Source: a virus. From it: DNA of 32,383 bases. The position numbers and the translations under genes are program-made. This document shows positions 3,235-28,899 of this stretch, piece by piece; position 1 is the stretch's first letter; every line of letters starts with the position of its first letter. The notes under the pieces were generated by a model, which was not told where the DNA came from, searched no databases, and worked only from the letters and a program-made list of their open reading frames with translations. Location of the stretch: IMG/VR virus record IMGVR_UViG_3300025087_000233, positions 1-32,383 of that record; one strand, 5' to 3'.

Positions 3235-3601
3235 CCAGCACCGCGCTACCCGCCTTTGACGCGATCCACATATCCACGCCTAAGCGCAGATATGTACCCG
3301 TGCCAAAACTGCGTCTCTCGAAGAAGGCGAACTCCTTGCCCGCAAGTGTCAGCCCGATCTCTTCCCCGGCTGGCACTTTTCGTATCTTCACATTGGACGC
3401 GCCAATGCGACACTTGCCAATGGTTGTAGGCGAAGGCGGTGGAGGAGGGGGAAACTTGATCTTATCCGTGACGGGGTTGTTTACAAAGAATGTGGCCTCA
3501 ACCTTGTAACCGGACGCGGCGAGGTTGACCATCTGTTGACCGATGGTTGAGATAACACCATCATTATCGGTGATGTTGAAAATTAGCACGTTGTCGGCCA
3601 T
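3221..3601 (-). CDS. Small virion-type protein with poly-proline linker
   Basis: 126 residues from ATG 3601, just 3 bp after the portal stop. Two short beta-rich parts (NVLIFNITDNDGVISTI; CRIGASNVKIRKVPAG) are joined by a run of Pro residues around positions 51-58. Position after the portal suggests a minor head or decoration role, but nothing in the sequence proves it. It is the last minus gene before the inserted plus-strand cassette. Confidence 0.7.
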   Translation of the reverse strand: MADNVLIFNITDNDGVISTIGQQMVNLAASGYKVEATFFVNNPVTDKIKFPPPPPPSPTTIGKCRIGASNVKIRKVPAGEEIGLTLAGKEFAFFERRSFGTGTYLRLGVDMWIASKAGSAVLATEI

Positions 3602-3604
3602 ATT

Positions 3605-5257
3605 CTATGCCCTCGCTGGCTTCTTCACCTCAGGCTTCGCTGGCTCTTGAGGCTTCTCCGCTGTTGGATTCTGGTTACGTTGGTTGACAGCATCAGCGGG
3701 TATGGCTTTCTCCCCTCGCGCCACTCTTTGCCCACCGCTACCGGTTACCTCGTTCATTACACGTCTCTCTGATGCCTCATCCTTTGACGGGAAACCGGCA
3801 ATACGGCGCACCGATTCTTCCAGTTTGTCATCAGGTGTGATCACCTGTGCGCCGACCGTTTTGTTGATGTAGTCACCCACAACTTTCAAGTCTGGTGTTG
3901 AGATGTCGGAGTGATCAACAATGGGGTGATCCTCTACACCAAACTCAGGGTTGAGCATGAACAGAGGATCAACGAGGAAGCGGTTGATCGTATCCTTGAT
4001 CGAGTCGGCCCATGCCGCAACCGCTAGTTGAAAAAAGTCGGTTGTGACGGTCGCCAATGCTTGCGATCCTTGTTGATCCATCCCCAAGTGTATGAATTGC
4101 GCTAGGCCAACCATCGCCATACGCTTTTCGTGTCGTTGGATAATAGCACCGAAGTCTACCGCGCTTCTCATTGGCGGTGCAGTAAACTCGAACAGCACGC
4201 CGTTATCGTTCTGTGAGTTGCCCGTACCCATCTTCTTGTGAGGGATGACGAGGCTCATTTGCTCGTCAATGCGAATGTTGCGGCCCATGCGACGGTATTC
4301 TTGTATCTCCGCGTCTGAAGTGTTTCCCTTGCTTACATCATCGCCTAAGTAGAATGTGGGGAAACCAGCGCCCATGCGCTCGGTGGCGATGGCCTCAATT
4401 TCCTCTAGGTTTTTGGCATAATACCACGACGAATACATTGCGCGAAGTACTGACCTTCCCTCGGGGTTGTCACGCTCCGTTGTCGTGCGAAAGAGTATCA
4501 TCTTCTCAATAGGTATGGGGATAACCGACTGCGAGATAAACGTGCCGCCGATGGGAGGCCGCTGGTTGAGTCCTCTGAGTGATCCGTCCTTCTCATCAAA
4601 TATCCACGCATTGCCCTGCGCGAGTGTATCCTGGCCGATGAAGGCAAACTTCTTCCACCCGATACGCCCATCGGAATAGCGCGAGCGAGGCGTGCGAGGC
4701 CCCGGTCGTAGTCCCGGCCCTCGGCGTATCTTGTACACTGACTCAAATGGTGCGAAGCCGTATTGCAACATGCTCATACCCTGATCAATGAAGTCCGACC
4801 ACGAGAGAGACATATCGTGCATACATTGATCGAGGAAGTCTTTTGCTTCCGTGCTTTGTTTGTCGTTCTCGGAAACGGCAAACCACTTGACACGGCGCAA
4901 GGTCATCTTCATAGCCGAGAGCGTTGCCGCAACGATAGGGTTATTTCCCATCTCCTTATACAGTTGAACAGCGCGATAGCCGTTCAACTCGCGCAAGTAG
5001 TCTTCGGCTACATCCCCACCGTGTCGAATAAGCGCGGAGACCGAGCGTTGTGTGAACAAGTCGCCTATTGGTTTGATGATAGGCGCGCCGGGAATGCCAT
5101 CAGCCATTATATCCGCGCTGCGCTTGCGGTTGCGCCTTTGTTTGTCGAGTCGGTAAACGTAACTTGGCGTTACGCTAAAGTCCTGTGCGATGATAGGGGG
5201 ATCGCCCCCTTTGTCTAGTGCTTCGAGTATGGCCGGTTGGCGGTTGTTCTTACGCAT
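3605..5257 (-). CDS. Phage portal protein (DUF935-like) with N-terminal HTH-like segment
   Basis: 550 residues, ATG 7 nt after GGGAG. Residues about 90-480 have the portal pattern of DUF935/Mu gp29-like proteins: an early helical region (NNPIVAATLSAMKMTLRRVK), the GMSMLQYGFAPFESVYK block, a stem region (ERMGAGFPTFYLGD) and a clip/crown part, then a Pro/Ala/Lys-rich tail. Portals form the dodecameric DNA gate at one capsid vertex and dock terminase. Residues 8-45 (AILEALDKGGDPPIIAQDFS, VTPSYVYRLDKQRRNRKR) read as a helix-turn-helix, which is not usual in portals. It lies downstream of terL as expected. Confidence 0.85.
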   Translation of the reverse strand: MRKNNRQPAILEALDKGGDPPIIAQDFSVTPSYVYRLDKQRRNRKRSADIMADGIPGAPIIKPIGDLFTQRSVSALIRHGGDVAEDYLRELNGYRAVQLYKEMGNNPIVAATLSAMKMTLRRVKWFAVSENDKQSTEAKDFLDQCMHDMSLSWSDFIDQGMSMLQYGFAPFESVYKIRRGPGLRPGPRTPRSRYSDGRIGWKKFAFIGQDTLAQGNAWIFDEKDGSLRGLNQRPPIGGTFISQSVIPIPIEKMILFRTTTERDNPEGRSVLRAMYSSWYYAKNLEEIEAIATERMGAGFPTFYLGDDVSKGNTSDAEIQEYRRMGRNIRIDEQMSLVIPHKKMGTGNSQNDNGVLFEFTAPPMRSAVDFGAIIQRHEKRMAMVGLAQFIHLGMDQQGSQALATVTTDFFQLAVAAWADSIKDTINRFLVDPLFMLNPEFGVEDHPIVDHSDISTPDLKVVGDYINKTVGAQVITPDDKLEESVRRIAGFPSKDEASERRVMNEVTGSGGQRVARGEKAIPADAVNQRNQNPTAEKPQEPAKPEVKKPARA

Positions 5258-12702: not shown

Positions 12703-12926
12703 TTGTTGAAAATCTTTCCAATGGACGAGGGGTACATAGACTGATAAGCATTCTTCCATTCGCTTCTGACATTTGCATGAATGAAATCAGCATAGGCTTC
12801 TAAGCATGTCTCAAGAGTCCTTTGACCAGTAGCAATTGTGAGTATATGCCCCGAATACTCATAATTACTAAACACTCCGTTACAATACGGACATAGCACC
12901 TGAGTTTTCTTTCCTACAGTTATCAT
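12699..12926 (-). CDS. Small CxxC protein, probable inserted cassette gene
   Basis: 75 residues starting MITVGKKTQVLCPYCNGVF, ATGA-coupled to the ThDP gene. One CPYC pair near the N-terminus, the rest helical with Trp/Tyr. It separates the ThDP gene's real end from a copy of that end (12673-12702). No function recognised. Confidence 0.65.
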   Translation of the reverse strand: MITVGKKTQVLCPYCNGVFSNYEYSGHILTIATGQRTLETCLEAYADFIHANVRSEWKNAYQSMYPSSIGKIFNK

Positions 12927-14530
12927 GCGCGACCTCCAGTTTTAGGCCATGTCATATCATCTGCCGTTTTGCCACCCTCAAGTATAGGCCAAACGCCTTC
13001 TTCCTCAATCTTGTGAACCGTAAGCGAGAGACCATAGGCTTTGGCAATAGCCTCAAAGTCAGGGTTGTGCCACGTTGTCTCACGCGGGTCGTATCCGTTG
13101 AGTCGAGCGAACTGGCTTACAATTCCCCCATTGCTATTATCAAGTATGTGTATATGCAAGTCACAGCGAGGGTAGTATTCGGCTAGAGTGCCGAGTTCGT
13201 TGAGGGAGAGTTGGAATGACCCATCTCCATCAATAAGGACAACTTTTTTGCCTGTAGCAATGGCAATCCCAATAGCCATCGGTAGTCCTGCACCCATGCA
13301 ACCGTGTCCAGCCGATGTAACAAACTGGCGTTTCGGATAATCCAATGTAAGGTGACGAGCCGCGTGTTGCTGATGACTTCCCACTCCCGATACGAATATG
13401 GTGTCTCCCACATATTGTTCATCTATCTCTCCTATCACTCGTGCAAATTGCGAGTCGGGCGGTTGCATATCGTAGAACTTCTCACCGCAGGTTGTTGACC
13501 AGTTCTCGTACCAGTCCGAGCCAACGAGGTCTTCATTGAGATACGCAAGTACCTCTTCACAAGTAGAGTGTATTGCTAAGTCACAACGTACACGGCTTTG
13601 GTCTAACTCCGCTTGGTCAATATCCACTCGCACGATCTTCTTGTCCTTTGCCCACGCCTCAACTTCTGTGCCTGTTTGCCTCACGTCAAGTCGTGCGCCA
13701 AGAGCCACAACCAAGTCACTATGCTGAACAACCCAATTAGCACAAGGCATACCAGTATGTCCCACCATGCCGAAGTAGAATGGAGAGCTGGTTGGCACAA
13801 GTCCTACTGCGGGAAGGGAGGCGACACAGGAAATGCCCAGCCTTTCCACCAGCGAGCGTAACTGTTCAACGCTCGCACGACAGCCAGCGCCAATGAGAAA
13901 GACGGGTCGTTCCGCGCTGGTGAGTAGGCCAGACAGTTCAACAAAAGACTCGTATGATGGATGTGGATCGTGCCGCACGTGCTTATCAAGGTATTCCCCA
14001 TTGGGGTCTACCTCACGCCTTTGGATGTCCATTGGCATATCTATTAGAACTGGCCCATTGCGTCCCGACTGTGCAATAGACAAGGCATCAATAAAGTCTT
14101 GTACCAACCTATCGCCATTGCGTCCAACGTAGTCACCGAACGAGGCTTTGGTAATTGGCTTAGACAATTCTATTGCTGGAACTTCCTGAAAGGCTCTTTG
14201 CCTAACTTCTGAACGAGAAGCGAGGTTGTTAGACCCAACCTGACCACTCAATACAACAATAGCGCATGAATCATAGTAACTATCTGCTATTCCCGTAATG
14301 GCATTAGTCATACCGGGTCCGCTGGTTACACAAACAAATTGGGGATTTTTCGTCGCCTTATATGCTCCAATAGCACAAAACATTGCTCCGTGTTCCGATC
14401 TAGTAGTTATTACTTCTAGGTCAATGCAATGTGCCGCATCAAGCAGAGGGTAGATCGTTCCTCCGGGATAACACCACAATCTTGCACCTACACTCTTTAT
14501 CTCGCGTGCTATCCACTCAACTCCATTCAT
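12923..14530 (-). CDS. Thiamine diphosphate enzyme, acetolactate-synthase-like
   Basis: 535 residues with the three-domain layout of the family. Catalytic Glu in ITTRSEHGAMFCAIGAYKAT (Glu46); the PYR domain block VTSGPGMTNAITGIADSYYD; the central domain; and the ThDP/Mg motif GDGSFQLSLNELGTL ... ILDNSNGG near the C-terminus. Acetolactate-synthase relatives transfer a two-carbon unit from pyruvate to a carbonyl. In sugar loci, related enzymes (YerE of yersiniose synthesis) add an acetyl branch to a keto-sugar, a plausible role next to dehydratase and aminotransferase genes. A biosynthetic acetolactate synthase is less likely in this setting. The ATG lies about 9 nt after GAGGGG. Confidence 0.85.
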   Translation of the reverse strand: MNGVEWIAREIKSVGARLWCYPGGTIYPLLDAAHCIDLEVITTRSEHGAMFCAIGAYKATKNPQFVCVTSGPGMTNAITGIADSYYDSCAIVVLSGQVGSNNLASRSEVRQRAFQEVPAIELSKPITKASFGDYVGRNGDRLVQDFIDALSIAQSGRNGPVLIDMPMDIQRREVDPNGEYLDKHVRHDPHPSYESFVELSGLLTSAERPVFLIGAGCRASVEQLRSLVERLGISCVASLPAVGLVPTSSPFYFGMVGHTGMPCANWVVQHSDLVVALGARLDVRQTGTEVEAWAKDKKIVRVDIDQAELDQSRVRCDLAIHSTCEEVLAYLNEDLVGSDWYENWSTTCGEKFYDMQPPDSQFARVIGEIDEQYVGDTIFVSGVGSHQQHAARHLTLDYPKRQFVTSAGHGCMGAGLPMAIGIAIATGKKVVLIDGDGSFQLSLNELGTLAEYYPRCDLHIHILDNSNGGIVSQFARLNGYDPRETTWHNPDFEAIAKAYGLSLTVHKIEEEGVWPILEGGKTADDMTWPKTGGRA

Positions 14531-14636: not shown

Positions 14637-15221
14637 TTATTCCTTCACCCACATCCAACCCGGATCGATCAACGTTACGATCCTCTGTGCCGCTACTTCC
14701 ACTGGCATCACCTCTTTACCGGCATAGTGACTCTCTGGCAGTTGACGAAGCATATCAGTCATTACTAAGTCAAAGCGTATGATCTCAATTGTCCAGCCTC
14801 GTCTCTCAACGGCAAAGTCATCTGCTAATGTCTTAGCGTAATGCTCCATCGCGCACTTGGCAGCGGCATAGTGTGGGTTTACCGTAGATGGTCTCTCCAC
14901 TGCCACACTTGACACGACGACGATCTTACAGCCATCTCTAAGTATCTGCCATCCCCATTGAGTGATAATGTTGTAGAAGGTGAGAGGAAAGCGAAATGCG
15001 TCTAGTCCACCGAGTTTTATGTCGCCTGCACAGTAGATAAACGCATCGTACCCGCCTATTTCATCAGCATCGTGACGGAGGTTATAAGTGTGTCGGTTGC
15101 CAAGCGCAACTACGTTGAATTGCTGGCGACCGTAGGCGACGACGTTCCAGTTGAGGGAGGTAAGCAAGTCGGCTGTGGCTTTGCCAATTCCTCTACTGCC
15201 ACCTATGATGAGTGCGTTCAT
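14637..15221 (-). CDS. Short-chain dehydrogenase/reductase of the sugar cluster
   Basis: 194 residues, short for an SDR (usually about 250). NAD(P)-binding IIGGSRGIGKATA at 5-17, active-site Ser in VVVSSVAV (104/105), and catalytic YAAAK with Tyr118 and Lys122. The C-terminal substrate region is reduced. ATGA-coupled to the upstream methyltransferase. Likely reduces or oxidises a keto group of the cluster's intermediate. Confidence 0.85.
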   Translation of the reverse strand: MNALIIGGSRGIGKATADLLTSLNWNVVAYGRQQFNVVALGNRHTYNLRHDADEIGGYDAFIYCAGDIKLGGLDAFRFPLTFYNIITQWGWQILRDGCKIVVVSSVAVERPSTVNPHYAAAKCAMEHYAKTLADDFAVERRGWTIEIIRFDLVMTDMLRQLPESHYAGKEVMPVEVAAQRIVTLIDPGWMWVKE

Positions 15222-16060
15222 ACTTTCACCGCCATATAACTAATGTCCCGTCCCCAACTATGCCAGCCCCACAGTTGATACTTAGCGCGACGGTACTTAT
15301 CACCTGTTTCCAAGTCGTGTGCTATACGTTGCTGATGCAACTGACAACCAAGTGTGGGATCGTCAAGATAATTCAGACCGTCCATCAAGTATTGCTCTGG
15401 TTGCCACGAGCCATAAGCGTCAAAGCAACGAAAGCCATTCTTCCAGAGAAATGAGGTGAAGTCGTCTGACCAGTAATTGATATGCGTCTTGTCTAGCCAG
15501 TAGTATGGTCTATTGATCTTTTCCATTGCACGAAACTGCATACTGGAGAAGTCATTGGGAATGGTAATAAGCAACACACCATTCGTTGCTAGTCGCTTAT
15601 AGCACCACTGCAAAAAGTGAGTAGGGTCGGCAAGGTGCTCCATCACCCAATGTGCTGAGAGTATACCGTAGTCTGTGCCAGAGTAGTCAGCATACTCGCA
15701 CCATGCCACGCGCGGGTCAGAATGTGCCAAATCGTAGTCTGGTTCTACCCCCGTTGCGTCCAAGCCAAACGTCTGAGCAGAGTTGAGAAAGTGACCCGTG
15801 CCACAACCCACATCGAGTAAGCGATGATTAGGCAAATGAGACTCACACAATACCAGCCAGTCTCGATGTATGGCTTGATGCCACGCCAGGTCTCGTTCAT
15901 AGTCATCTCGCATAGTAGGCTTCATTGTGCTGTGGTAAATACCGCTTGGGTAGATAGAGGTATCGGGTATGGGATCAAGATGTTTGAAACAACAAACATC
16001 ACACTGTATCGCACATAGGTTATCCTTTGTGGCTACAAGTTTTCCAGAGTGGTTAGACAT
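15218..16060 (-). CDS. SAM-dependent methyltransferase with N-terminal Cys motif
   Basis: 280 residues. An N-terminal Cys group (CAIQCDVCCF, about 16-25) may bind zinc, as in C-methyltransferases of sugar loci. Motif I is LLDVGCGTGHFL; later GVEPDYDLA, SAHWVMEHLADPTHF and LLITIPNDF complete a class I fold. The N-terminal Cys plus class I core recalls NDP-sugar C-methyltransferases, but the C-terminal half of that family is not obvious. Ribosome site GGAG six nt before ATG; overlaps the previous gene by 8 bp. Confidence 0.83.
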   Translation of the reverse strand: MSNHSGKLVATKDNLCAIQCDVCCFKHLDPIPDTSIYPSGIYHSTMKPTMRDDYERDLAWHQAIHRDWLVLCESHLPNHRLLDVGCGTGHFLNSAQTFGLDATGVEPDYDLAHSDPRVAWCEYADYSGTDYGILSAHWVMEHLADPTHFLQWCYKRLATNGVLLITIPNDFSSMQFRAMEKINRPYYWLDKTHINYWSDDFTSFLWKNGFRCFDAYGSWQPEQYLMDGLNYLDDPTLGCQLHQQRIAHDLETGDKYRRAKYQLWGWHSWGRDISYMAVKV

Positions 16061-21823: not shown

Positions 21824-21994
21824 TTAACCTCCTCCCGCATATATGCCAAACAATGCACATGCCATACCAAACACGATCACTGTCACGAAGATGATGTTCC
21901 TCAGTGCAAGCAACAGTCTCAACGCAAATGACGGTGGATAGCGCAGAGGCGAGAACTTGACGGGGTAGTTGTACAAATAGGGTGAGTAGTTCAT
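21824..21994 (-). CDS. Small membrane protein, paralogue of the one at 22650
   Basis: 56 residues: Tyr/Pro-rich N-terminus (MNYSPYLYNYPVKFSPLRYP) and one span (NIIFVTVIVFGMACALFGI), ending AGGG. ATGA-coupled to the RNA ligase gene. The span and end resemble the 37-residue protein before the ligase gene (IIFITLVVSL ... RAGG). The terminal glycines are encoded by the ribosome site of the next gene. Confidence 0.6.
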   Translation of the reverse strand: MNYSPYLYNYPVKFSPLRYPPSFALRLLLALRNIIFVTVIVFGMACALFGIYAGGG

Positions 21995-22647
21995 TTGAAG
22001 TCCCTATATTTGAGTTTCCACATCAGGCGATTTCCATATCGGTTGAATAGTATTGGTACAGTACGTGCCACAATTCCCTCAGCACGACAACCAGTGCCAC
22101 CGTCTTGTGTTGCAACAAAACTGTCTACGATAAGTCGCTCCAGATCGTCCAAAGACCGAGGGAGATAATCTACGACAGACACAAGCGGCACGGTGAGAAT
22201 GTTCAATTTGTTGGCAATGTCCACCAGTGCGTCCTGTTCCAACCACCAACGACCTACCAGCACATCAAATAATCTGAATGACACTCCCTTGCGATACGCT
22301 CCACCACCCTTTTGTATTTTCTCTCCGTATCCCTCGCCAAACAGAATCACGTCATTTTCTCCAGCGGTCTCGAAAACTTGAGACATCAACTCTGGTGTAA
22401 AGGTACTGTTCAAGTAGTTGATCAATGTGGAGGGAATTTGAGCACTATCGGTTCGACCGCCAAATACAAGCCGTCTGTTGAATTGTTCATCCCTTAGCCA
22501 CATGATACGGATGTTAGTACCATCCATCTTTTCTGTGAGATGCCATTGGTTGACAAGCGCAAATTCTGGAAGACGTAGTTGTGACGGGATAACAGCATGA
22601 GTTCTTTCATCACGGTCGTAAAGAGTTTCTATCTTAGGATATTCCAT
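21991..22647 (-). CDS. RNA ligase-family nucleotidyltransferase (Rnl2-like)
   Basis: 218 residues from ATG 22647 (GGAGG at 6 nt; the ATG six bases upstream is too close to it). Motif I LTEKMDGTNIRI with the AMP-accepting Lys40, SFRLFDVLVG as motif III/IIIa, CRAEGIVART as motif IV and LMWKLKYRDF as motif V: a complete covalent nucleotidyltransferase core. Phage RNA ligases repair tRNAs or other RNAs nicked by host defence. It sits inside the sugar operon, between two related membrane mini-genes, and shares the phage with a large structured RNA, but a link is only a guess. Confidence 0.87.
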   Translation of the reverse strand: MEYPKIETLYDRDERTHAVIPSQLRLPEFALVNQWHLTEKMDGTNIRIMWLRDEQFNRRLVFGGRTDSAQIPSTLINYLNSTFTPELMSQVFETAGENDVILFGEGYGEKIQKGGGAYRKGVSFRLFDVLVGRWWLEQDALVDIANKLNILTVPLVSVVDYLPRSLDDLERLIVDSFVATQDGGTGCRAEGIVARTVPILFNRYGNRLMWKLKYRDFK

Positions 22648-22649
22648 TT

Positions 22650-22763
22650 TCATCCTCCCGCACGCGAGATAGCGTACATCAACGATACGACAAGCGTAAT
22701 GAAAATGATCCAGAACAGGGCCATCACTATGGCTTTCAGCACGACTTGGAGTTTTCTGATCAC
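22650..22763 (-). CDS. Very small single-span membrane protein
   Basis: 37 residues from a GTG overlapping the PseB-like stop (GTGA). Basic start (MIRKLQVVLKA), span (IVMALFWIIFITLVVSLMYA), end SRAGG. Related in its last 20 residues to the protein at 21824. The C-terminal Ala-Gly-Gly comes from translating the ligase gene's GCGGGAGGA ribosome site. Confidence 0.6.
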   Translation of the reverse strand: MIRKLQVVLKAIVMALFWIIFITLVVSLMYAISRAGG

Positions 22764-23710
22764 TTGCGTATTAGTTCCTTCAATTCGTCTCGTGTAAGCC
22801 TCTGTACCATATCGCTTGATATGGCATGGTCGAGTCTCGCGCCATCTCGCGGTTCATAGTTCCACACGCCGCGTATCTCATGGTTTGGCTCGACCACATA
22901 CGACCATTCTAAGTCTACAGTATGAGAGGCTTCGTAGTCGGAGATAAGAAACTCATGAGAGCGATCCCCAAAGCGGGGTGGGATATTAGTAAACCGCTTG
23001 TCAGGGAATACCTCGGTAAACGCAATGGCAAGATCGTACAAGTTCCACGCGCTACACTTCGGCACGTAGACCTCGCCGCCGCGCATATCGTCAATGGCGT
23101 GACAGGCGAAGTCTAGCCAGTAATTCATCGGGAGATGAAAGCGTGTGGCAGTGGGTTGCGTAACGGATAGTACGTCTGAATTGTGCCAGCGTTCTACGAC
23201 TGATCCTCGGCTACCCCAGACGTTGCCCCCGCGAATGCAGGAGAAGCGCGAGTTGTAGGATACACCGAGGATGTTCGCATTGATTAACAAGCCTTCACTA
23301 AGCATCTTCGTTGCGCCATACCTGTTCATTGGCTGGCAACATTTGTCAGATGACACAAGGAGCGAGCGTGGCACGTAGTTGGCAATGGCCGCTTGGATGA
23401 CGCTCTGTGTACCGAGGACGTTGATGGATACCATCTCGGCGGTGTGCAACTCACCGGTGGGGACAATTTTCAAAGCCGCCGCGTGAACTACTACATCAAC
23501 ATTGTGGAAGGCTATCTTGAGCCGTTCGAGGTCGCGTATGTCACAGAGGACGTAGGAGACGCGAGAGGAGGGAGGTATCTCCGCCATCAACGCAACCTGC
23601 TTGTGTTCATCGCGCGAGATGAGGCGAAGAGAGTCGAGGGTGTTTGCTAACAAGTATCTAGCGAGCGACGAGCCGAACGAGCCGGTCGCACCGGTCAGGG
23701 CATAGATCAT
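22760..23710 (-). CDS. PseB/CapD-like NDP-GlcNAc 4,6-dehydratase
   Basis: 316 residues, the usual length for PseB. NAD-binding TGATGSFG (6-13), SRDEHKQ (32-38), VHAAALKIVP, and the catalytic trio Asp122-Lys123-Tyr131 with Lys135 in SSDKCCQPMNRYGATK; GGNVWGSRGSVV follows. This is the inverting UDP-GlcNAc 4,6-dehydratase/5-epimerase pattern that starts pseudaminic-acid and related pathways. Position fits: it is the first gene of the long sugar operon, directly behind a consensus-like promoter. No ribosome site is seen and the predicted 5' leader is only a few bases. Confidence 0.9.
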   Translation of the reverse strand: MIYALTGATGSFGSSLARYLLANTLDSLRLISRDEHKQVALMAEIPPSSRVSYVLCDIRDLERLKIAFHNVDVVVHAAALKIVPTGELHTAEMVSINVLGTQSVIQAAIANYVPRSLLVSSDKCCQPMNRYGATKMLSEGLLINANILGVSYNSRFSCIRGGNVWGSRGSVVERWHNSDVLSVTQPTATRFHLPMNYWLDFACHAIDDMRGGEVYVPKCSAWNLYDLAIAFTEVFPDKRFTNIPPRFGDRSHEFLISDYEASHTVDLEWSYVVEPNHEIRGVWNYEPRDGARLDHAISSDMVQRLTRDELKELIRK

Positions 23711-24523: not shown

Positions 24524-24763
24524 CTAGTTCCTTTCTGATTCATTTGACGATGAAGACAAGTTCTTCATCAATGTCGCTATTTGTTCTAGTGCTGTTGCGA
24601 TGCGCTCCAGTACATCGGCGTAGTCATTGAACTGTTGTAATGTACTGAGTAATGGAGGAATATATGTCGTTCCCGCCGGACAGACATGAGTTGTATTGCT
24701 ATCAATCCATTTGCCACAACTCTGACATTGCCATCCGCCAACGGTGTTTTGTGGAAATCCCAT
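24524..24763 (-). CDS. Small Cys-pair and coiled-coil protein
   Basis: 79 residues: CQSCGKW ... HVCPAG gives a short zinc knuckle at 13-29, followed by a heptad-like helix (NDYADVLERIATALEQIATL). Start overlaps the previous stop as TAATG with GGAG upstream. Confidence 0.65.
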   Translation of the reverse strand: MGFPQNTVGGWQCQSCGKWIDSNTTHVCPAGTTYIPPLLSTLQQFNDYADVLERIATALEQIATLMKNLSSSSNESERN

Positions 24764-24996
24764 TATTCTCCTCTTTTCTCTTTCACTTTCTCAACTTCGT
24801 AAACACGAATTGCTATTGAAAAGTAAAGTTTCCGACCACACGCGGGACAACTATATATCAATGGTTCTTCACGGTAGATGCTGATATTGAATTTCCACGA
24901 TGCAAATGTTGCACCGCAGACACACTTGGTTATTGGCAACGACTCGCTATCATTATCATTAAACTCAACTAATTGGGTTACGTCTTTATCTGGCAT
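24763..24996 (-). CDS. Small zinc-ribbon protein
   Basis: 77 residues; KCVCGATFASWKFN and SCPACGRKLYF form a two-pair zinc ribbon at about 25-56. This arrangement is frequent among uncharacterised phage proteins. It is the first gene after the structured-RNA region and has no good ribosome site; the sequence before it is the pyrimidine-rich end of that region. Confidence 0.65.
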   Translation of the reverse strand: MPDKDVTQLVEFNDNDSESLPITKCVCGATFASWKFNISIYREEPLIYSCPACGRKLYFSIAIRVYEVEKVKEKRGE

Positions 24997-25024
24997 GGGG
25001 AAGGAGCCGAGGTAAGCAAAATGT

Positions 25025-26103
25025 GCAGGGTCGACCTGCCTGATATTCCGCCGTTACATGGTGGCTTTTCCATGTCATAAATGAGTGTAGGGTCGTCTCT
25101 CCGACCCGTCAAACCTAGTACCATAATGGTTTCCTTACGGCTTTCGCACAGGGTAACTCTATCCCTGACTGTCGTTCCTTTTTGCGGCACTGTACGTTGT
25201 GATACGGATACAGTGTTGTTCCGCTCGACCACTGTTGTTATGGCCTCACCGACAGAGCCTTTCACGCAATAGCGTGTTGAATAGTGGTGGACGTGCCGAC
25301 TATCGCAAGTCGGGTCTGAAAGCACTTGGTTCTCTCGTCACTAGCATTCCGCTATATCCCTAGCGGTTGAGCCTTGCGTTGCACAACGATCCTCGCTCAT
25401 TGGCCTGCTCTTACGGTCATGCTACGACCAGCGTTGTGCGTTTGCCTACTTAGGGATGATAGGCTTCCACCATCACATTCAGTTACACCGCGAACGCGAA
25501 AGACGGTTGCGGCTGAACGAATTGCTTGACGGCCTCAGCCAGACCGCGCCAGAGTTTCGTGATGAAGTTGGCAGTTGTCATTTGCGCTAGAGAGATTAGC
25601 GTCCCGCTTCCATCGAATCTATGTCACGCCCGTATTGTGCAAGCGAGTGGGCTTGCCACTGTCCCCAATGCGCTGAGTCTCGTATTGCCGAGTCATAATG
25701 ATCGACCAGAGGCTTGGTTGTCCTCATACGCAGACTCTATCGCGCTAAACAAGGGGGGTGCTGTTGTCTTTGCCTCGCGTCTCCATCGGTTGTGCGCCGA
25801 TACCGCGATGTCGCTTGCCGTACTTTGTAAAAGTGCTGTGTAAACGTTCTGTCTCCCAACAGTAGCCACCATCCTGAGAACAGCGCGTATCAGTTGCGCG
25901 TACTGCATATCTCTACGCAGTCCAGATCGTCGGTGGTTTTCGACCAGCGTTGATGCCTGACGCCTGAGTGTTCAACATCATAACTTTTACCGCTGAACGC
26001 TCAACTTCTTAGCCGCTTGGCTTTTGAGGCCGGTTATCACGTCAAGGTGATTGCTCTAACTGAGCAGGTATATCTGATCGCTTCTCTCACTTCACTGCTG
26101 AAG
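25025..26103 (-). ncRNA. Candidate very large structured RNA (GOLLD/ROOL-like or new)
   Basis: About 1.08 kb without a credible gene in six frames but full of perfect inverted repeats: 25025-25039, 25056-25075, 25090-25107, 25149-25167, 25188-25215 (7 bp), 25263-25276, 25296-25313, 25349-25366, 25381-25388 with 25432-25439 (8 bp), 25639-25656, 25675-25680 with 25732-25737, 25785-25801, 25903-25920, 26036-26051, 26052-26066 and 26090-26103. Minus strand is preferred: it follows the surrounding genes, gives a GCGAAAGC tetraloop hairpin, and the adjacent stems at 26066-26036 read like a tRNA D-arm (GCTCAGTTAGAGC) and anticodon arm (ATCAC-CTTGAC-GTGAT). No own promoter is seen. Ornate phage RNAs of this size are known (GOLLD, ROOL); membership is unproved. 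Confidence 0.7.
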
Positions 26104-26113
26104 ACAATTTCTG

Positions 26114-26656
26114 CTAACCCACATCCACGAGGATCGTGGCATTCTTGAGTGAGAGTTGGCCGTCCAACGTACCGAGGATGTATTCAACTTCCTCAATCTC
26201 CTTAGCCAACTCTTGTTCATTCAAGTTTACCACTATGTCACCCGGCTTGGCACTCTCCACTGAGTTAGCCAACGTTGCACCGCGCCGAAGTGTGTCATTG
26301 CGTTGTTGGTCAATCTTCTGTCGCAATTGCGCTAGGAGTTGCTGATGCTGTGGCGCAATCTCACGTCGCCACACTAGCCAGTCAGCGATAGGACGGACAC
26401 GATCACCAATGGCAATCATGTTCCCCTCATTTGCCAACTGAATCGCACGCCGTGTGGCAACAATGCGCTCCTGCAAATCCGAGATGGACTGTCGCTCGCG
26501 CGCCACCGCCTGTGCCGATCCCCCATCTCCCTGCAATGGATCACGCACATGCTCCGGGCGCATCAGGTAGTCCAGCACAAACTGCTTCTTCTTCTCCAGC
26601 CGCTTGCCGATGGTTTTCAGTTCCGCAAGCGCCTCGGTGATCGTAACTTGTGACAT
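26114..26656 (-). CDS. Coiled-coil phage protein, DIP1984-like layout
   Basis: 180 residues from ATG 26656 with GAGGAG upstream. Mostly helical: TITEALAELKTIGKRLEKKK, then ISDLQERIVATRRAIQLAN, a central IADWLVWRREIAPQHQQLLA helix, and a short beta-like C-terminus (GQLSLKNATILVDVG). The helix order resembles DIP1984-family/phage structural proteins of unknown role. It has its own promoter and lies immediately upstream of the structured-RNA region, with which it may be co-transcribed. Confidence 0.75.
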   Translation of the reverse strand: MSQVTITEALAELKTIGKRLEKKKQFVLDYLMRPEHVRDPLQGDGGSAQAVARERQSISDLQERIVATRRAIQLANEGNMIAIGDRVRPIADWLVWRREIAPQHQQLLAQLRQKIDQQRNDTLRRGATLANSVESAKPGDIVVNLNEQELAKEIEEVEYILGTLDGQLSLKNATILVDVG

Positions 26657-26708
26657 GACTTTTCTCCTCGTAACCTAGAGTGACAGGAATACTCTGCCTA
26701 CGCCTATT

Positions 26709-26738
26709 ATCTTATCACCCAACCTACACACCTGTCAA
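26709..26738 (-). promoter_or_regulatory. Sigma70-type promoter for gene 26114-26656 and the structured RNA
   Basis: Minus strand TTGACA (26738-26733), 18-bp spacer, TAAGAT (26714-26709), about 50 nt before the ATG. The -35 is consensus, the -10 moderate. It is the nearest promoter upstream of the RNA region. Confidence 0.6.
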
Positions 26739-26748
26739 CTGCCTCTCA

Positions 26749-26907
26749 TTATCCCCTAATCTCCCGCCACTTGACACTGTTATCCAATAGTTGTAAGGTG
26801 ATCTCGTGGCTATTCGCACTCCCTCCCCAATAATCCTCAACCAGTCTCACCACAAATATACAGTCGCAGACAAAATTGTGAGACCAAAAATTTAGGGGAA
26901 AAAACAT
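26749..26907 (-). CDS. Possible small protein
   Basis: 52 residues from ATG 26907 (no clear ribosome site); the C-terminal part VRLVEDYWGGSANSHEITLQ looks protein-like, the N-terminus less so. A GTG at 26850 is another start. A GTCTCAC/GTGAGAC inverted repeat crosses the first half. Low support. Confidence 0.3.
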   Translation of the reverse strand: MFFPLNFWSHNFVCDCIFVVRLVEDYWGGSANSHEITLQLLDNSVKWREIRG

Positions 26908-27089
26908 GCGCGCACATGACACAGCATCGGCTTGACATAACGCAAGTTTGAAATTGCGACCATGTGCCATTGTGTCAACAAACAATGCGGGTATGGGTGA
27001 TTGCATTGTGCAAGATATGATGGGCATGGGCGAGGGCATGGGCGAGACGCGAGACGCGCGGGGGTGTGCTACTAGGTGAGGGGAGGGGG
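26908..27089. other. Intergenic region with repeats, no convincing gene
   Basis: Holds one TTGACATAACGC motif (26932-26943) and a 12-bp direct repeat, GGGCATGGGCGA twice in tandem (plus strand, about 27023-27046), followed by a G/C-rich stretch. No promoter or coding pattern is convincing. Confidence 0.35.
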
Positions 27090-27125
27090 AAACGAAAAGC
27101 GCGATACAGGGTGAGTGTATCGCGC
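27090..27125 (-). terminator. Rho-independent terminator
   Basis: Minus-strand perfect 10-bp stem GCGCGATACA (27125-27116) with TGTATCGCGC (27108-27099), loop of 7, followed by TTTTCGTTT. Ends the operon of genes 27150-28033. The same TTTTCGTTT tail occurs at the 30.05-kb terminator. Confidence 0.85.
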
Positions 27126-27149
27126 CAGGGGGGAGCGTATGCGAGTCCG

Positions 27150-27317
27150 TTACAAACGCGGGATGAAGGGCTTACCCGCACATAGTTCGGCTATGGCATC
27201 TGCTACCATGCGCCTGATAAATGCGGACAACGGGAGGTACAGCATAGTACGCAGATGAACGATATGCTGTACTCGATTGACGCAAACATAGCATGTGCGG
27301 TAGTTGTAGTTAGGCAT
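27150..27317 (-). CDS. Small hypothetical protein
   Basis: 55 residues starting MPNYNYRTCYVCVNRVQHIV, GGAG 8 nt upstream. One CYVC pair, otherwise a helical, basic protein. A much longer frame exists upstream but belongs to the neighbour's DNA in another frame. Last gene before the terminator. Confidence 0.6.
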   Translation of the reverse strand: MPNYNYRTCYVCVNRVQHIVHLRTMLYLPLSAFIRRMVADAIAELCAGKPFIPRL

Positions 27318-27462
27318 TGTACAATCTCCAATACCGCGCAGCACAGGCCAGAGCGTAGTCGCACAGGTGATCACAATCGCGCGGAGTAAGCGCAATTGTG
27401 GTACGTGCTACCATGCGGTTGTAGAATATGCAAGCAATCTCAACAAAGCTTAAGTGACTCAT
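27310..27462 (-). CDS. Small hypothetical protein
   Basis: 50 residues (MSHLSFVEIACIFYNRMVAR onward), several Cys in the C-terminal half. ATGA-coupled to the previous gene with GGAG 8 nt upstream. No motif recognised. Confidence 0.55.
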   Translation of the reverse strand: MSHLSFVEIACIFYNRMVARTTIALTPRDCDHLCDYALACAARYWRLYNA

Positions 27463-27695
27463 TCTCTAATCTCCAATGGCAAGCGGTGTTTGAACCTCTC
27501 GCCGCTTTCCGTCGTCTGATAGAGGACAACGCCACTGCTACCAGTTATGCGGCCAACGTACCAGAGTGTACCATTACGCTCCTGGTACAACGTGCTACAT
27601 AGCACACCAGGCGCAATGGCCGGCAGGGTATGCACATGCAACACATCAGCGCATAGTGTACAGGGATACGCAATGCCGGCCAGCGTGACGATCAC
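27459..27695 (-). CDS. Small hypothetical protein with CxxC
   Basis: 78 residues from GTG 27695 (GTGA overlap with the previous stop, GAGG 7 nt upstream). Contains AYPCTLCADVLHVHTLP near the N-terminus, suggestive of a zinc or redox pair, followed by a beta-rich part (TLWYVGRITGSSGVVLYQT). Confidence 0.6.
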   Translation of the reverse strand: MIVTLAGIAYPCTLCADVLHVHTLPAIAPGVLCSTLYQERNGTLWYVGRITGSSGVVLYQTTESGERFKHRLPLEIRE

Positions 27696-28033
27696 TCCTG
27701 TACCTCTTCGCCAATTGGCGATAGGGACGTGTGAGAAATACAGTTCATTTTGCCAATGGGGTATTCGTCTCTGGCGCGGGCGACGTAAATCGTCATGTCG
27801 TCGCCCTCCGTGAGAATCAATCCGCCAAATCCAAATGCACGCCCGATCTGACTATCGGACGGACTAGCCGACTTGAATTCCATCGGCGTTCCGGGATTGT
27901 TCACCTCCACTCTCAAACGCAAAGGGTAACGACGATTGAAACAATATCGATCATTGACAGTATAGCCGTCTTCGTCATTCCCCCACATGTCATAACTCCA
28001 CAATTCCCACTCCGTCTGTATCGTTTTGTTCAT
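27692..28033 (-). CDS. Conserved-type small phage protein, first gene of an operator-controlled operon
   Basis: 113 residues from ATG 28033 (AGAGGATA just before). Starts MNKTIQTEWELWSYDMWGND and continues DGYTVNDRYCFNRRYPLRLR; this WSYDMWGNxxDGYxVND pattern is frequent among uncharacterised phage proteins. Transcribed from the promoter at 28186-28214, under three inverted-repeat operators, so it is probably part of a repressed (early) unit. Confidence 0.75.
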   Translation of the reverse strand: MNKTIQTEWELWSYDMWGNDEDGYTVNDRYCFNRRYPLRLRVEVNNPGTPMEFKSASPSDSQIGRAFGFGGLILTEGDDMTIYVARARDEYPIGKMNCISHTSLSPIGEEVQE

Positions 28034-28059
28034 TATCCTCTCTCCTCCCTCCCCCATGC

Positions 28060-28074
28060 GGCTATCCGCACAGG
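28060..28074 (+). repeat. GGCTATCCGCACA motif with palindromic core
   Basis: Within TGCGG-CTAT-CCGCA, a perfect inverted repeat (28057-28070) just upstream of the 28033 ATG. The same GGCTATCCGCACA occurs at 29917 and 29934. Confidence 0.55.
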
Positions 28075-28085
28075 GGAGGAACTTG

Positions 28086-28199
28086 ACTTAGTGTATGTTT
28101 GACACTAAGTATGCGGGGTTAACTGTTTGTGTAAGTGATACGACTTAGTGTACATTTGACACTATCTCACTGGTACTTAGTGTCATTTATACACTATCT
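28086..28199. promoter_or_regulatory. Three operator-like inverted repeats TAGTGT-N7-ACACTA
   Basis: Copies at 28086-28110, 28143-28167 and 28175-28199. All contain TAGTGT, seven spacer bases and ACACTA, preceded by ACT; the first extends to ACTTAGTG/CACTAAGT. The third covers the -10 of the minus-strand promoter. The symmetric sites at spacings of 57 and 32 bp look like binding sites of a dimeric repressor. Confidence 0.8.
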
Positions 28200-28214
28200 T
28201 CCTCTTTGTGCCAA
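28186..28214 (-). promoter_or_regulatory. Operator-overlapped promoter for the 28033 operon
   Basis: Minus strand TTGGCA (28214-28209), 17-bp spacer, TATAAA (28191-28186). The -10 lies inside the third TAGTGT-N7-ACACTA site, so occupancy should block polymerase. Confidence 0.7.
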
Positions 28215-28221
28215 ACTGCTT

Positions 28222-28491
28222 CTAGTAATCGCCGTCGTACTCACCGCGTACCTCGGCGCGTACTTCGGCGGCATATCCAAGAGGATCAATCTCGCGCGTA
28301 CAATTTTCGCAATGGTATCCCTTCGCCAATTTCCATCGCTCGATTGGTCCTCCGCAATCGGGGCATTTGGCGGATGACGGGGCTTTGCCAGTAGTGCAAA
28401 GCTTGCACTTGCCCGCATGTTCTCGAGCATACTTTTTGGAGGTGTTACATCCACAAGTCGTACACCGAATTAGGAAACGTCTGTTATCCAT
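28222..28491 (-). CDS. Zinc-ribbon protein with four CxxC pairs
   Basis: 89 residues (ATG 28491, AAGG 9 nt upstream; ATG 28497 possible). Cys pairs CTTCG, CKLC, CPDCG and CENC make two zinc sites across residues 9-65, with a charged tail. Likely nucleic-acid- or protein-binding. The gene ends just before the operator-controlled promoter. Confidence 0.7.
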   Translation of the reverse strand: MDNRRFLIRCTTCGCNTSKKYAREHAGKCKLCTTGKAPSSAKCPDCGGPIERWKLAKGYHCENCTREIDPLGYAAEVRAEVRGEYDGDY

Positions 28492-28502
28492 TGTCATTAT
28501 CC

Positions 28503-28748
28503 TTATGCTATCACCCTCACGACTAGCGCAAGGATGACAAGCGCTAATAGGCCGTAGAACACGGCCAGCCTGTAAATCTGCCGCCGCGTCTTGGGTCCAA
28601 ATTCGCCGACGTGCTGTGAAACGGTTAGCATACCCCCGTCCGCAAATTTGTAGACGCGGTGGGAGGTGCCATTTTGACGTACCTCGACAGCGATAGGGCG
28701 GAAGAGGTTATCAGCCTCGCGGGGGGTGCGGGGAGCGTGCTTAGCCAT
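28503..28748 (-). CDS. Small tail-anchored membrane protein
   Basis: 81 residues starting MAKHAPRTPREADNLFRP; GGAGG 6 nt upstream. Soluble N-terminal part with a VRQNGTSHRVYKFADGGM strand region and a single C-terminal span (LAVFYGLLALVILALVVRVI). No function recognised. Confidence 0.65.
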   Translation of the reverse strand: MAKHAPRTPREADNLFRPIAVEVRQNGTSHRVYKFADGGMLTVSQHVGEFGPKTRRQIYRLAVFYGLLALVILALVVRVIA

Positions 28749-28899
28749 AGCACACCTCCACAAGTTCAATCGCTAGGGGAGTTTGTCTAACAGTGTGAAC
28801 GTATAAGATACCCCCGTCTCGATAATATCTGATCATGAGGGTGCGCTTGCCACACTTCGGGCATTTGATCCGTTGAGGCTTGCGGGGAGAGCGTTTCAT
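28741..28899 (-). CDS. Small basic CxxC protein
   Basis: 52 residues starting MKRSPRKPQRIKCPKCGKRT, with GGAGG just before the TAATG-overlapped start. One Cys pair plus a terminal VCYG; basic, so possibly nucleic-acid-binding. Confidence 0.6.
   Translation of the reverse strand: MKRSPRKPQRIKCPKCGKRTLMIRYYRDGGILYVHTVRQTPLAIELVEVCYG

What the first reader, a model, noticed from the sequence alone, without database searches (positions are those of the whole stretch)
25025..26103. Kilobase-scale structured RNA in a gene-free stretch of the phage
About 1.08 kb in a genome otherwise packed with overlapping genes has no credible ORF, yet carries at least thirteen perfect hairpins of 5-8 bp with short loops, several nested. 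Known giant phage RNAs (GOLLD, ROOL) are gene-sized, ornate and lie among phage genes. Strand, size and position fit that class, but I cannot match its consensus from memory, so it could be a new class.
Basis: partly seen in the sequence, partly recalled or inferred. Interest (0 to 1): 0.92.

Follow-up and report, generated by a model that had tools for sequence, protein, structure and literature searches.

The report
Phage RNA carrying a swappable tRNA
The gene-free stretch begins with a folded RNA, absent from the Rfam catalogue, that lies beside one particular phage gene in dozens of unrelated phages and carries a tRNA or tRNA fragment that differs from phage to phage; it probably forms a protein-RNA particle that may shield phages from tRNA-cutting bacterial defences.

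Summary
Minus-strand bases 26113-24997 have no coding periodicity and carry about twice the hairpins expected by chance. It is not GOLLD, ROOL or any Rfam 15 family.

The first ~260 nt (window 26105-25851) belong to an RNA family that I delimited here from 53 of 57 loci carrying the same neighbouring gene. The core has a terminal helix, a pseudoknot and two hairpins. Covariation is overwhelming: 22 of 23 core pairs change on both sides; score 0.81 against 0.11-0.18 for slid controls. Inside sits a slot holding an intact tRNA (many isotypes), a circularly permuted tRNA, or only an anticodon stem-loop or T-arm; the slot turns over faster than the neighbouring protein. In the window it is a degenerate D-arm plus anticodon arm. 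The neighbour is a remote DIP1984-fold protein, labelled 'tail fiber' in databases. The same gene, with a gap of like anatomy, occurs in cultivated Acinetobacter, Lactococcus, Cronobacter, Erwinia and E. coli phages.

The remaining ~850 nt (25850-24997) have no homologue. That they form one kilobase RNA with the core is unproven, though two relatives have a covarying ~1.8 kb extension there.

Inferred function: a protein-RNA particle displaying tRNA or anticodon-loop bait against tRNA-cutting host defences.

The parts
25851..26105 (-). Core RNA domain (new family), from the 5' strand to the 3' strand of its terminal helix
   Evidence: Covariance model R1 hits 25844-25940 with 72.3 bits, E 6e-23 (the window is one of the 31 seed rows); terminal helix and pseudoknot covariation in 37 sequences; coordinates
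26094..26105 (-). P1 5' strand (GTCTTC-A-GCAGT), terminal helix
   Evidence: Pairs with 25851-25863; covariation scores 0.55 (both halves) against at most 0.21 when slid
26085..26089 (-). P2 5' strand (TGAGA), pseudoknot helix
   Evidence: Pairs with TCTCA at 25875-25879; 94% paired, score 0.40 against at most 0.20 slid
26036..26066 (-). tRNA slot, degenerate here: D-arm-like TGCTC-AGTTA-GAGCA followed by anticodon-arm-like ATCAC-CTTGAC-GTGAT (5- and 6-nt loops, shortened)
   Evidence: Direct reading; same slot holds intact tRNAs in 16 of 51 loci and anticodon/T-arm hairpins in many others. The window's own hairpins were too degenerate to be called by these criteria
25947..26007 (-). Purine-rich linker with AAAGYT-like repeats
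   Evidence: Motif enriched over the family (227 against 61 in shuffles, max 80); weak in the window itself (2 against 1.0)
25932..25936 (-). P3 5' strand (CCACC)
   Evidence: Pairs with GGTGG 25866-25870, 100% of cells paired, 4 of 5 pairs with double changes
25902..25922 (-). P4 hairpin with conserved AGAGA-type loop
   Evidence: 8 of 8 pairs with double changes over the family
25883..25899 (-). P5 hairpin
   Evidence: 6 of 6 pairs with double changes over the family
25866..25880 (-). P2 3' strand then P3 3' strand; interleaved with the 5' strands, hence a pseudoknot
25851..25863 (-). P1 3' strand (ACTGT-TG-GGAGAC)
24997..25850 (-). Extension: gene-free, hairpin-rich, no homologue found; belongs to the RNA only possibly
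   Evidence: 12 hairpins against 5.4; no match in phages, loci or 16 relatives' contigs
26114..26656 (-). Partner gene: remote DIP1984/DUF6847-fold protein, 180 aa, immediately upstream on the same strand
   Evidence: NCBIfam NF038048 hits 6 of 15 aligned relatives (best 3.5e-6), Pfam DUF6847 5 of 15, neither the window's own protein; AlphaFold model (pLDDT 94.7) best match 3kdq, Foldseek E 8e-4, Z 11.7 over 153 residues

Best explanation
SHOWN: the 5' ~260 nt are a member of a previously uncatalogued structured RNA family (terminal helix P1, P2/P3 pseudoknot, hairpins P4 and P5, and a slot for a tRNA or part of one) that is genetically tied to a gene for a DIP1984-fold protein in phages of many kinds. 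INFERRED: protein and RNA form one particle. The fixed core anchors the RNA on the protein; the slot presents a tRNA, or just an anticodon stem-loop, as bait (or as a resistant substitute) for host enzymes that attack tRNAs during infection, such as anticodon nucleases. That would explain why isotypes are swapped quickly, why broken and circularly permuted tRNAs persist, and why a bare anticodon arm is often what is left. Large extra RNA domains downstream of the core in some phages (2 kb scale in two relatives, ~0.85 kb here if it belongs) would be added scaffold. Identity of the RNA and its pairing with the gene: about 0.95. Particle with the protein: about 0.65. Bait/decoy role: about 0.35. 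The stated confidence is for the whole chain up to the protein-RNA particle with a tRNA-displaying slot.
For: Covariation: 31-sequence alignment, 90.6% of cells paired, 221 cells with double changes, score 0.806 against 0.231 +- 0.018 shuffled and 0.11-0.18 slid; P1 and P2 likewise. Linkage: model R1 found in 53 of 57 protein-bearing loci (22 or so of them not in the seed), 48 of 51 within 650 nt downstream of the gene on its strand, none in 0.98 Mb of unrelated phage DNA. Slot: 16 of 51 intact tRNAs of at least 11 isotypes; of 35 others 18 have an anticodon-arm-like hairpin (shuffles mean 1.3, max 5; this count includes some T-arms) and 12 a T-arm (mean 0.2). With T-arms excluded, 17 of 36 (mean 3.4, max 10), and the exact loop CTTGAAA (anticodon UGA) on unrelated stems in 7 loci (mean 0.015). 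Turnover: proteins 78% identical carry tRNA-Thr and tRNA-Leu; 71% identical, tRNA-Tyr and bare anticodon arms. Cultivated phages: same gene followed by a gene-free gap with closing helices of different sequence, in Acj9 and Mokit inside the tRNA cluster. The gene's neighbours in four loci (L138, L143, L159, L165) are replication genes, not tail genes. Phage tRNAs are known to evade tRNA-cutting defences (PMC11455837).
Against: No expression, binding or infection data. The bait role is inferred from anatomy only; an RNA-repair ligase, present in this window, is not a companion of the system (1 of 24 contigs). The DIP1984 fold has no known activity, and Z 11.7 for a helical bundle is moderate. 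Two bacterial DIP1984-family genes have no such RNA within ~1.5 kb. Model R1 does not score in the cultivated phages, whose 3' domain differs. The 3' strand of P1 often carries a GGAG just ahead of the next gene, so a leader role is not excluded.
Confidence: 0.62

Rival explanations
1. Giant-RNA scaffold: the core is the 5' domain of one continuous kilobase RNA that assembles on itself like GOLLD or ROOL; the tRNA is cargo or a passenger in a linker, and the protein is secondary.
For: Two relatives carry a further ~1.8 kb gene-free homologous extension with covariation (two-sequence consensus folds with z down to -9.2, double-change pairs 14 against 5.6); L140 has 1.8 kb of hairpin-rich gene-free DNA (31 against 10.9); the window 0.85 kb (12 against 5.4). 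GOLLD and ROOL also lie by tRNA islands and GOLLD may hold tRNAs in its linker (PMC12286853).
Against: Most loci have a coding gene directly after the ~260-350-nt core, so the core stands alone; extensions of the window, L138/L149 and L140 do not align with each other; no Rfam GOLLD/ROOL match.
Confidence: 0.2
2. Y-RNA-like adaptor: the terminal stem tethers a protein and the tRNA-like part recruits another factor such as a nuclease, as YrlA does with Rsr and PNPase.
For: Same plan: long 5'/3' stem plus D, T and acceptor arms (described for YrlA in PMC8394870), and permuted tRNA modules in L140, L141 and Erwinia phage SNUABM_48.
Against: No Rfam YrlA match; the partner gene is not Ro60/Rsr; intact, processable tRNAs in 16 of 51 loci and bare anticodon arms fit a Y RNA poorly.
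Confidence: 0.15
3. tRNA nursery: the core is a leader and trailer that delivers a phage tRNA for translation; broken slots are decay.
For: Intact tRNAs of many isotypes; in T4-like Acinetobacter phages the gene sits inside the tRNA cluster.
Against: Core pairing is kept in loci whose slot holds no working tRNA (35 of 51); recurrence of CTTGAAA anticodon arms on unrelated stems does not look like decay.
Confidence: 0.12
4. Cis-regulatory leader: the structure masks the start site (GGAG in the 3' strand of P1) of the next gene.
For: An ATG lies a few bases after GGAG in several loci, e.g. L142, L143, L147, L144.
Against: GGAG is replaced by other paired sequence in several loci (L146, L168, L170, L181), next genes differ, and the window, L138 and L149 have no gene there.
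Confidence: 0.08

Closest known systems
GOLLD and ROOL RNAs (Rfam; nanocage-forming phage RNAs)
   Same: Phage-encoded, structured, gene-free, near tRNA islands; GOLLD can carry a tRNA in its linker (PMC12286853)
   Different: No covariance-model match; the conserved unit here is ~260-350 nt with its own closing helix and pseudoknot, tied to a protein gene; long extensions are optional and unalike
Bacterial Y RNA YrlA with Rsr/Ro60
   Same: 5'/3' closing stem, tRNA-like module (here sometimes circularly permuted), presumed protein partner
   Different: Larger, pseudoknotted, variable real tRNAs in the slot, partner is a DIP1984-fold protein, no Rfam match
tmRNA (one-piece and permuted)
   Same: tRNA-like part plus pseudoknot in a 300-nt RNA
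   Different: No tag reading frame identified; isotypes vary; ARAGORN and Rfam do not call it, although they call true tmRNAs elsewhere in L161 and L188
Phage tRNAs that resist host anticodon nucleases (e.g. T5 against PARIS)
   Same: Phage-encoded tRNA or anticodon arms with variable isotype, possibly the same selective pressure
   Different: Here embedded in a conserved RNA core and often reduced to one arm
DIP1984 / DUF6847 protein family (3kdq, Corynebacterium diphtheriae)
   Same: Best fold match and remote profile matches
   Different: Phage members fall below the curated family score; bacterial members checked lack the RNA nearby

Membership tests
GOLLD, ROOL, OLE, HEARO (Rfam 15) | Covariance model match at the curated threshold | tested here: not met
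   No match in the window; none up to E=10 with permissive filters on the region; none on L149's 2 kb RNA
GOLLD/ROOL kind | Phage-encoded, by tRNA genes | tested here: met
   tRNA in the slot in 16 of 51 loci; T4-like tRNA clusters
GOLLD/ROOL kind | Single continuous kilobase RNA | tested here: inconclusive
   Covarying extension in L138/L149, no homologue for the window's extension
GOLLD/ROOL kind | RNA-only homo-oligomeric cage | not testable with these tools
   Needs cryo-EM or native gels
Any Rfam 15 family | Gathering-score match over the core | tested here: not met
   in the loci scanned only tRNA (in or near the slot), tmRNA and CyVA-1 elsewhere
YrlA Y RNA | 5'/3' stem plus tRNA-like domain | tested here: met
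   P1 covariation; permuted tRNA in L140, L141, SNUABM_48
YrlA Y RNA | YrlA covariance-model match and Ro60/Rsr partner | tested here: not met
   No Rfam match; partner is a DIP1984-fold protein
tRNA gene (window) | Complete cloverleaf | tested here: not met
   ARAGORN finds none; only D- and anticodon-like arms with short loops
DIP1984 family (protein 26114-26656) | Fold of 3kdq | tested here: met
   Foldseek E 8e-4, prob 1.00; Z 11.7 over 153 residues, next entry 8.4
DIP1984 family (protein 26114-26656) | NCBIfam NF038048 curated score (70 bits) | tested here: not met
   6 of 15 relatives hit at best 3.5e-6, the window protein not at all; hence 'remote DIP1984-fold', not a member
Tail fibre protein (PHROG 1491 label) | Place among tail genes / tail fold | tested here: inconclusive
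   PHROG 1491 match E 2e-11, but neighbours in four loci are DNA polymerase, SSB, exonuclease, annealing genes and best fold is DIP1984

The most novel reading that the evidence does not exclude
A widespread phage ribonucleoprotein in which a conserved pseudoknotted RNA, held by a DIP1984-fold protein, carries an exchangeable tRNA or anticodon stem-loop as bait against tRNA-cutting defences, with giant versions of 1-2 kb such as the one in this window.
Probability: 0.3. Interest if true: 0.93.

Novelty: categorically new. Interest (0 to 1): 0.86.

Why it matters
A structured RNA class with strong covariation, absent from Rfam 15 and tied to one protein family, occurs in cultivated phages where it can be tested. 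It gives a likely RNA partner to the DIP1984 fold, for which the papers held give no function, and it questions a database label ('tail fiber'). It also offers a concrete setting for why phages carry odd, broken and permuted tRNAs.

Tried and rejected
Rfam scan and permissive scan: nothing. blastn of the region against 50,697 phages: nothing. A 12-nt repeat (CAACGCTGGTCG, twice in the region) used as a pattern for IMG/VR gave only chance hits. Searches with the downstream zinc-ribbon protein and the RNA ligase found no relatives. Folding-energy z-scores proved uninformative, even for the proven core. Homology of the window's extension to those of L138, L149 and L140: no hit by blastn or nhmmer. 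A 16-nt core of the L138/L149 extension used on IMG/VR found only those two again. Co-occurrence with RNA ligase: 1 of 24 contigs, so an RNA-repair partnership is not supported. R1 in Chloroflexota genomes: 3 of 301, two of them weak. Beyond 3kdq no fold match of the protein stands clearly above the rest; that absence proves nothing.

Full report
CHECK OF THE OBSERVATION. The window is a 32,383-base IMG/VR phage record; 22 kb of an apparently identical phage extend it to the left. Its genes run mainly on the minus strand. Between the stop of 26114-26656 and the start of 24763-24996 lie 1,117 bases without coding periodicity (0.35 against 3.8-12 in ten genes) and with 16 perfect hairpins of at least 5 bp where shuffles give 6.6 +- 2.5. 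Stems are 5-6 bp, none 7 or longer. Minimum free energies are ordinary. ARAGORN and Rfam are silent.

FINDING THE RELATIVES. DNA searches failed, so I followed the neighbours. The upstream 180-aa protein led to one relative, then by alignment to 14 and 52 viral loci and 5 bacterial contigs, named as an Armatimonadota, an Emcibacteraceae, an Anaerolineaceae and another Chloroflexi MAG, and an uncultured bacterium. Directly downstream of that gene, on the same strand, nearly all carry the same gene-free module.

THE RNA. From 31 sequences the 3' domain gives a three-way element, P3 closing P4 and P5. Of 23 pairs, 22 show changes on both sides in at least one sequence; 90.6% of cells pair; the covariation score is 0.806 against 0.231 +- 0.018 for shuffles and 0.11-0.18 for slid controls. 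Reading the 5' block against the 3' end showed two more helices, tested on 37 concatenated sequences: P1, the terminal helix (scores 0.55 and 0.55, at most 0.21 when slid), and P2 (0.40, at most 0.20), which interleaves with P3 and so makes a pseudoknot. Registers were chosen by eye on these sequences, so the slid controls lean in their favour; the margins are nevertheless wide. A covariance model of the 3' domain finds 53 of the 57 loci, some 22 of which were not in its seed; two of the four misses (L139, L172) are cut by contig ends. It finds nothing in 0.98 Mb of other phage DNA. In 48 of 51 loci the domain starts 160-570 nt after the gene's stop.

THE SLOT. Between P2 and P3 lies a slot, then a linker with AAAGYT-like repeats (227 against 61 in shuffles). 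ARAGORN finds an intact tRNA in the slot in 16 of 51 loci: Gln, Thr, His, Ile, Arg, Leu, Tyr, Glu, Ser, Val, Lys and one undetermined. In L140 and L141 the slot reads T-arm, acceptor 3' strand, short hairpin loop, acceptor 5' strand, D-arm: a circularly permuted tRNA (direct reading). Elsewhere only arms remain: 18 of 35 with an anticodon-arm-like hairpin (shuffles 1.3, max 5; T-arms partly counted), 12 with a T-arm (0.2). With T-arms excluded, 17 of 36 (3.4, max 10), and the loop CTTGAAA on different stems in 7 loci (0.015 expected). Proteins 78% identical (L168, L171) carry tRNA-Thr and tRNA-Leu; at 71% (L147, L151) tRNA-Tyr and bare arms. The slot thus turns over faster than the gene. In the window it holds a D-arm-like and an anticodon-arm-like hairpin with shortened loops, resembling tRNA-Val(GAC) from memory; it was not called by the automatic criteria.

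THE PARTNER. PHROG 1491 and RefSeq call the protein 'tail fiber'. Its relatives match DIP1984 (NF038048) and DUF6847 remotely, and its confident model matches 3kdq from C. diphtheriae best. Neighbouring genes in four loci are replication genes. No paper held was found that links DIP1984 to an RNA. Two genuine bacterial DIP1984 genes have no R1 hit within about 1.5 kb.

CULTIVATED PHAGES. A remote match to Acinetobacter phage Acj9 opened a set of 107 records: Acinetobacter, Lactococcus, Salmonella, Cronobacter, Escherichia, Erwinia and others. In the nine regions I opened, the gene is followed by a stretch of 316-980 bases without annotated gene (in 24-2-1 only a 120-base ORF interrupts a like stretch; SSE121 is cut by the record's end). 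Several have a long closing helix of individual sequence, e.g. EspYZU14, 24-2-1, SNUABM_48, phiL47, 949 (0-1.7% of shuffles do as well), while in Mokit, SSE121 and CsaP_009 it is not significant; the linker motif is enriched overall (39 against 17, max 30) but not in phiL47, 949 or CsaP_009. In Acj9 and Mokit the gene stands inside the tRNA cluster; Erwinia phage SNUABM_48 has a permuted tRNA in the gap. R1 does not score there, so I call them the same kind by position and anatomy, not by model.

THE LAST 850 BASES. In most loci a gene follows the core directly. L138 and L149 have instead a further ~1.8 kb that aligns between them (58% identity over the 1.87 kb alignment), lacks coding periodicity in most windows and shows consensus folding beyond column-shuffled controls in several windows (z to -9.2). 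L140 has 1.8 kb, hairpin-rich, after a 90-aa ORF. The window's extension matches none of these. Whether it is part of the RNA, another RNA, or spacer is open.

HOW IT MAY WORK. Shown: the fold of the core, its linkage with the gene, the exchangeable slot. Inferred: protein binding, because one RNA and one protein family keep company while the surroundings change. Inferred further: bait or substitute against tRNA-cutting defences, because anticodon arms survive alone, isotypes turn over fast, and phage tRNAs are known to serve this end (PMC11455837). Rivals: a GOLLD-like scaffold, a Y-RNA-like adaptor, a tRNA nursery, and a leader of the next gene.

NOVELTY. The family has no Rfam 15 match in any locus scanned apart from the tRNA in its slot, and I found no description in the papers held; subscription journals were not searched. 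I rate it categorically new as a protein-linked RNA with an exchangeable tRNA slot, while the general setting (large phage RNAs near tRNAs) is known.

Noticed in passing
L140 ~2795-2880; L141 ~4770-4880; L220 (Erwinia phage SNUABM_48) ~3240-3345: Circularly permuted tRNA (3' half before 5' half) inside phage RNA; no report for phages found in the held papers.
   Followed up: partly
L138 4911-6775 and L149 4926-6930: Homologous gene-free RNA of about 1.8 kb, covarying, with the motif GAC..GCTCTGG repeated several times; would be among the largest phage RNAs.
   Followed up: partly
L140 3309-5100: 1.8 kb gene-free, very hairpin-rich (31 against 10.9), with several T-arm-like hairpins; not alignable with L138/L149.
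   Followed up: partly
L161 8200-8424; L188 1435-1796: tmRNA genes (one permuted) in phage contigs of this group.
   Followed up: no
L145 61-138: CyVA-1 RNA (RF02965) in the same contig as the new RNA.
   Followed up: no
window 26657-28800: Weak coding periodicity and a mild hairpin excess (21 against 13.9) upstream of the partner gene; small ORFs only.
   Followed up: no
window 12923-14530, 22760-23710, 15218-16060, 21991-22653: Thiamine-pyrophosphate enzyme, polysaccharide-biosynthesis epimerase, methyltransferase and RNA ligase genes in the phage.
   Followed up: no
PHROG 1491 / RefSeq phage records (e.g. NC_014663.1 80388-80954): DIP1984-fold proteins labelled 'tail fiber protein', probably wrongly.
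   Followed up: partly
window 25425-25436 and 25941-25952: 12-nt exact direct repeat CGACCAGCGTTG, one copy in the core linker and one in the extension.
   Followed up: partly
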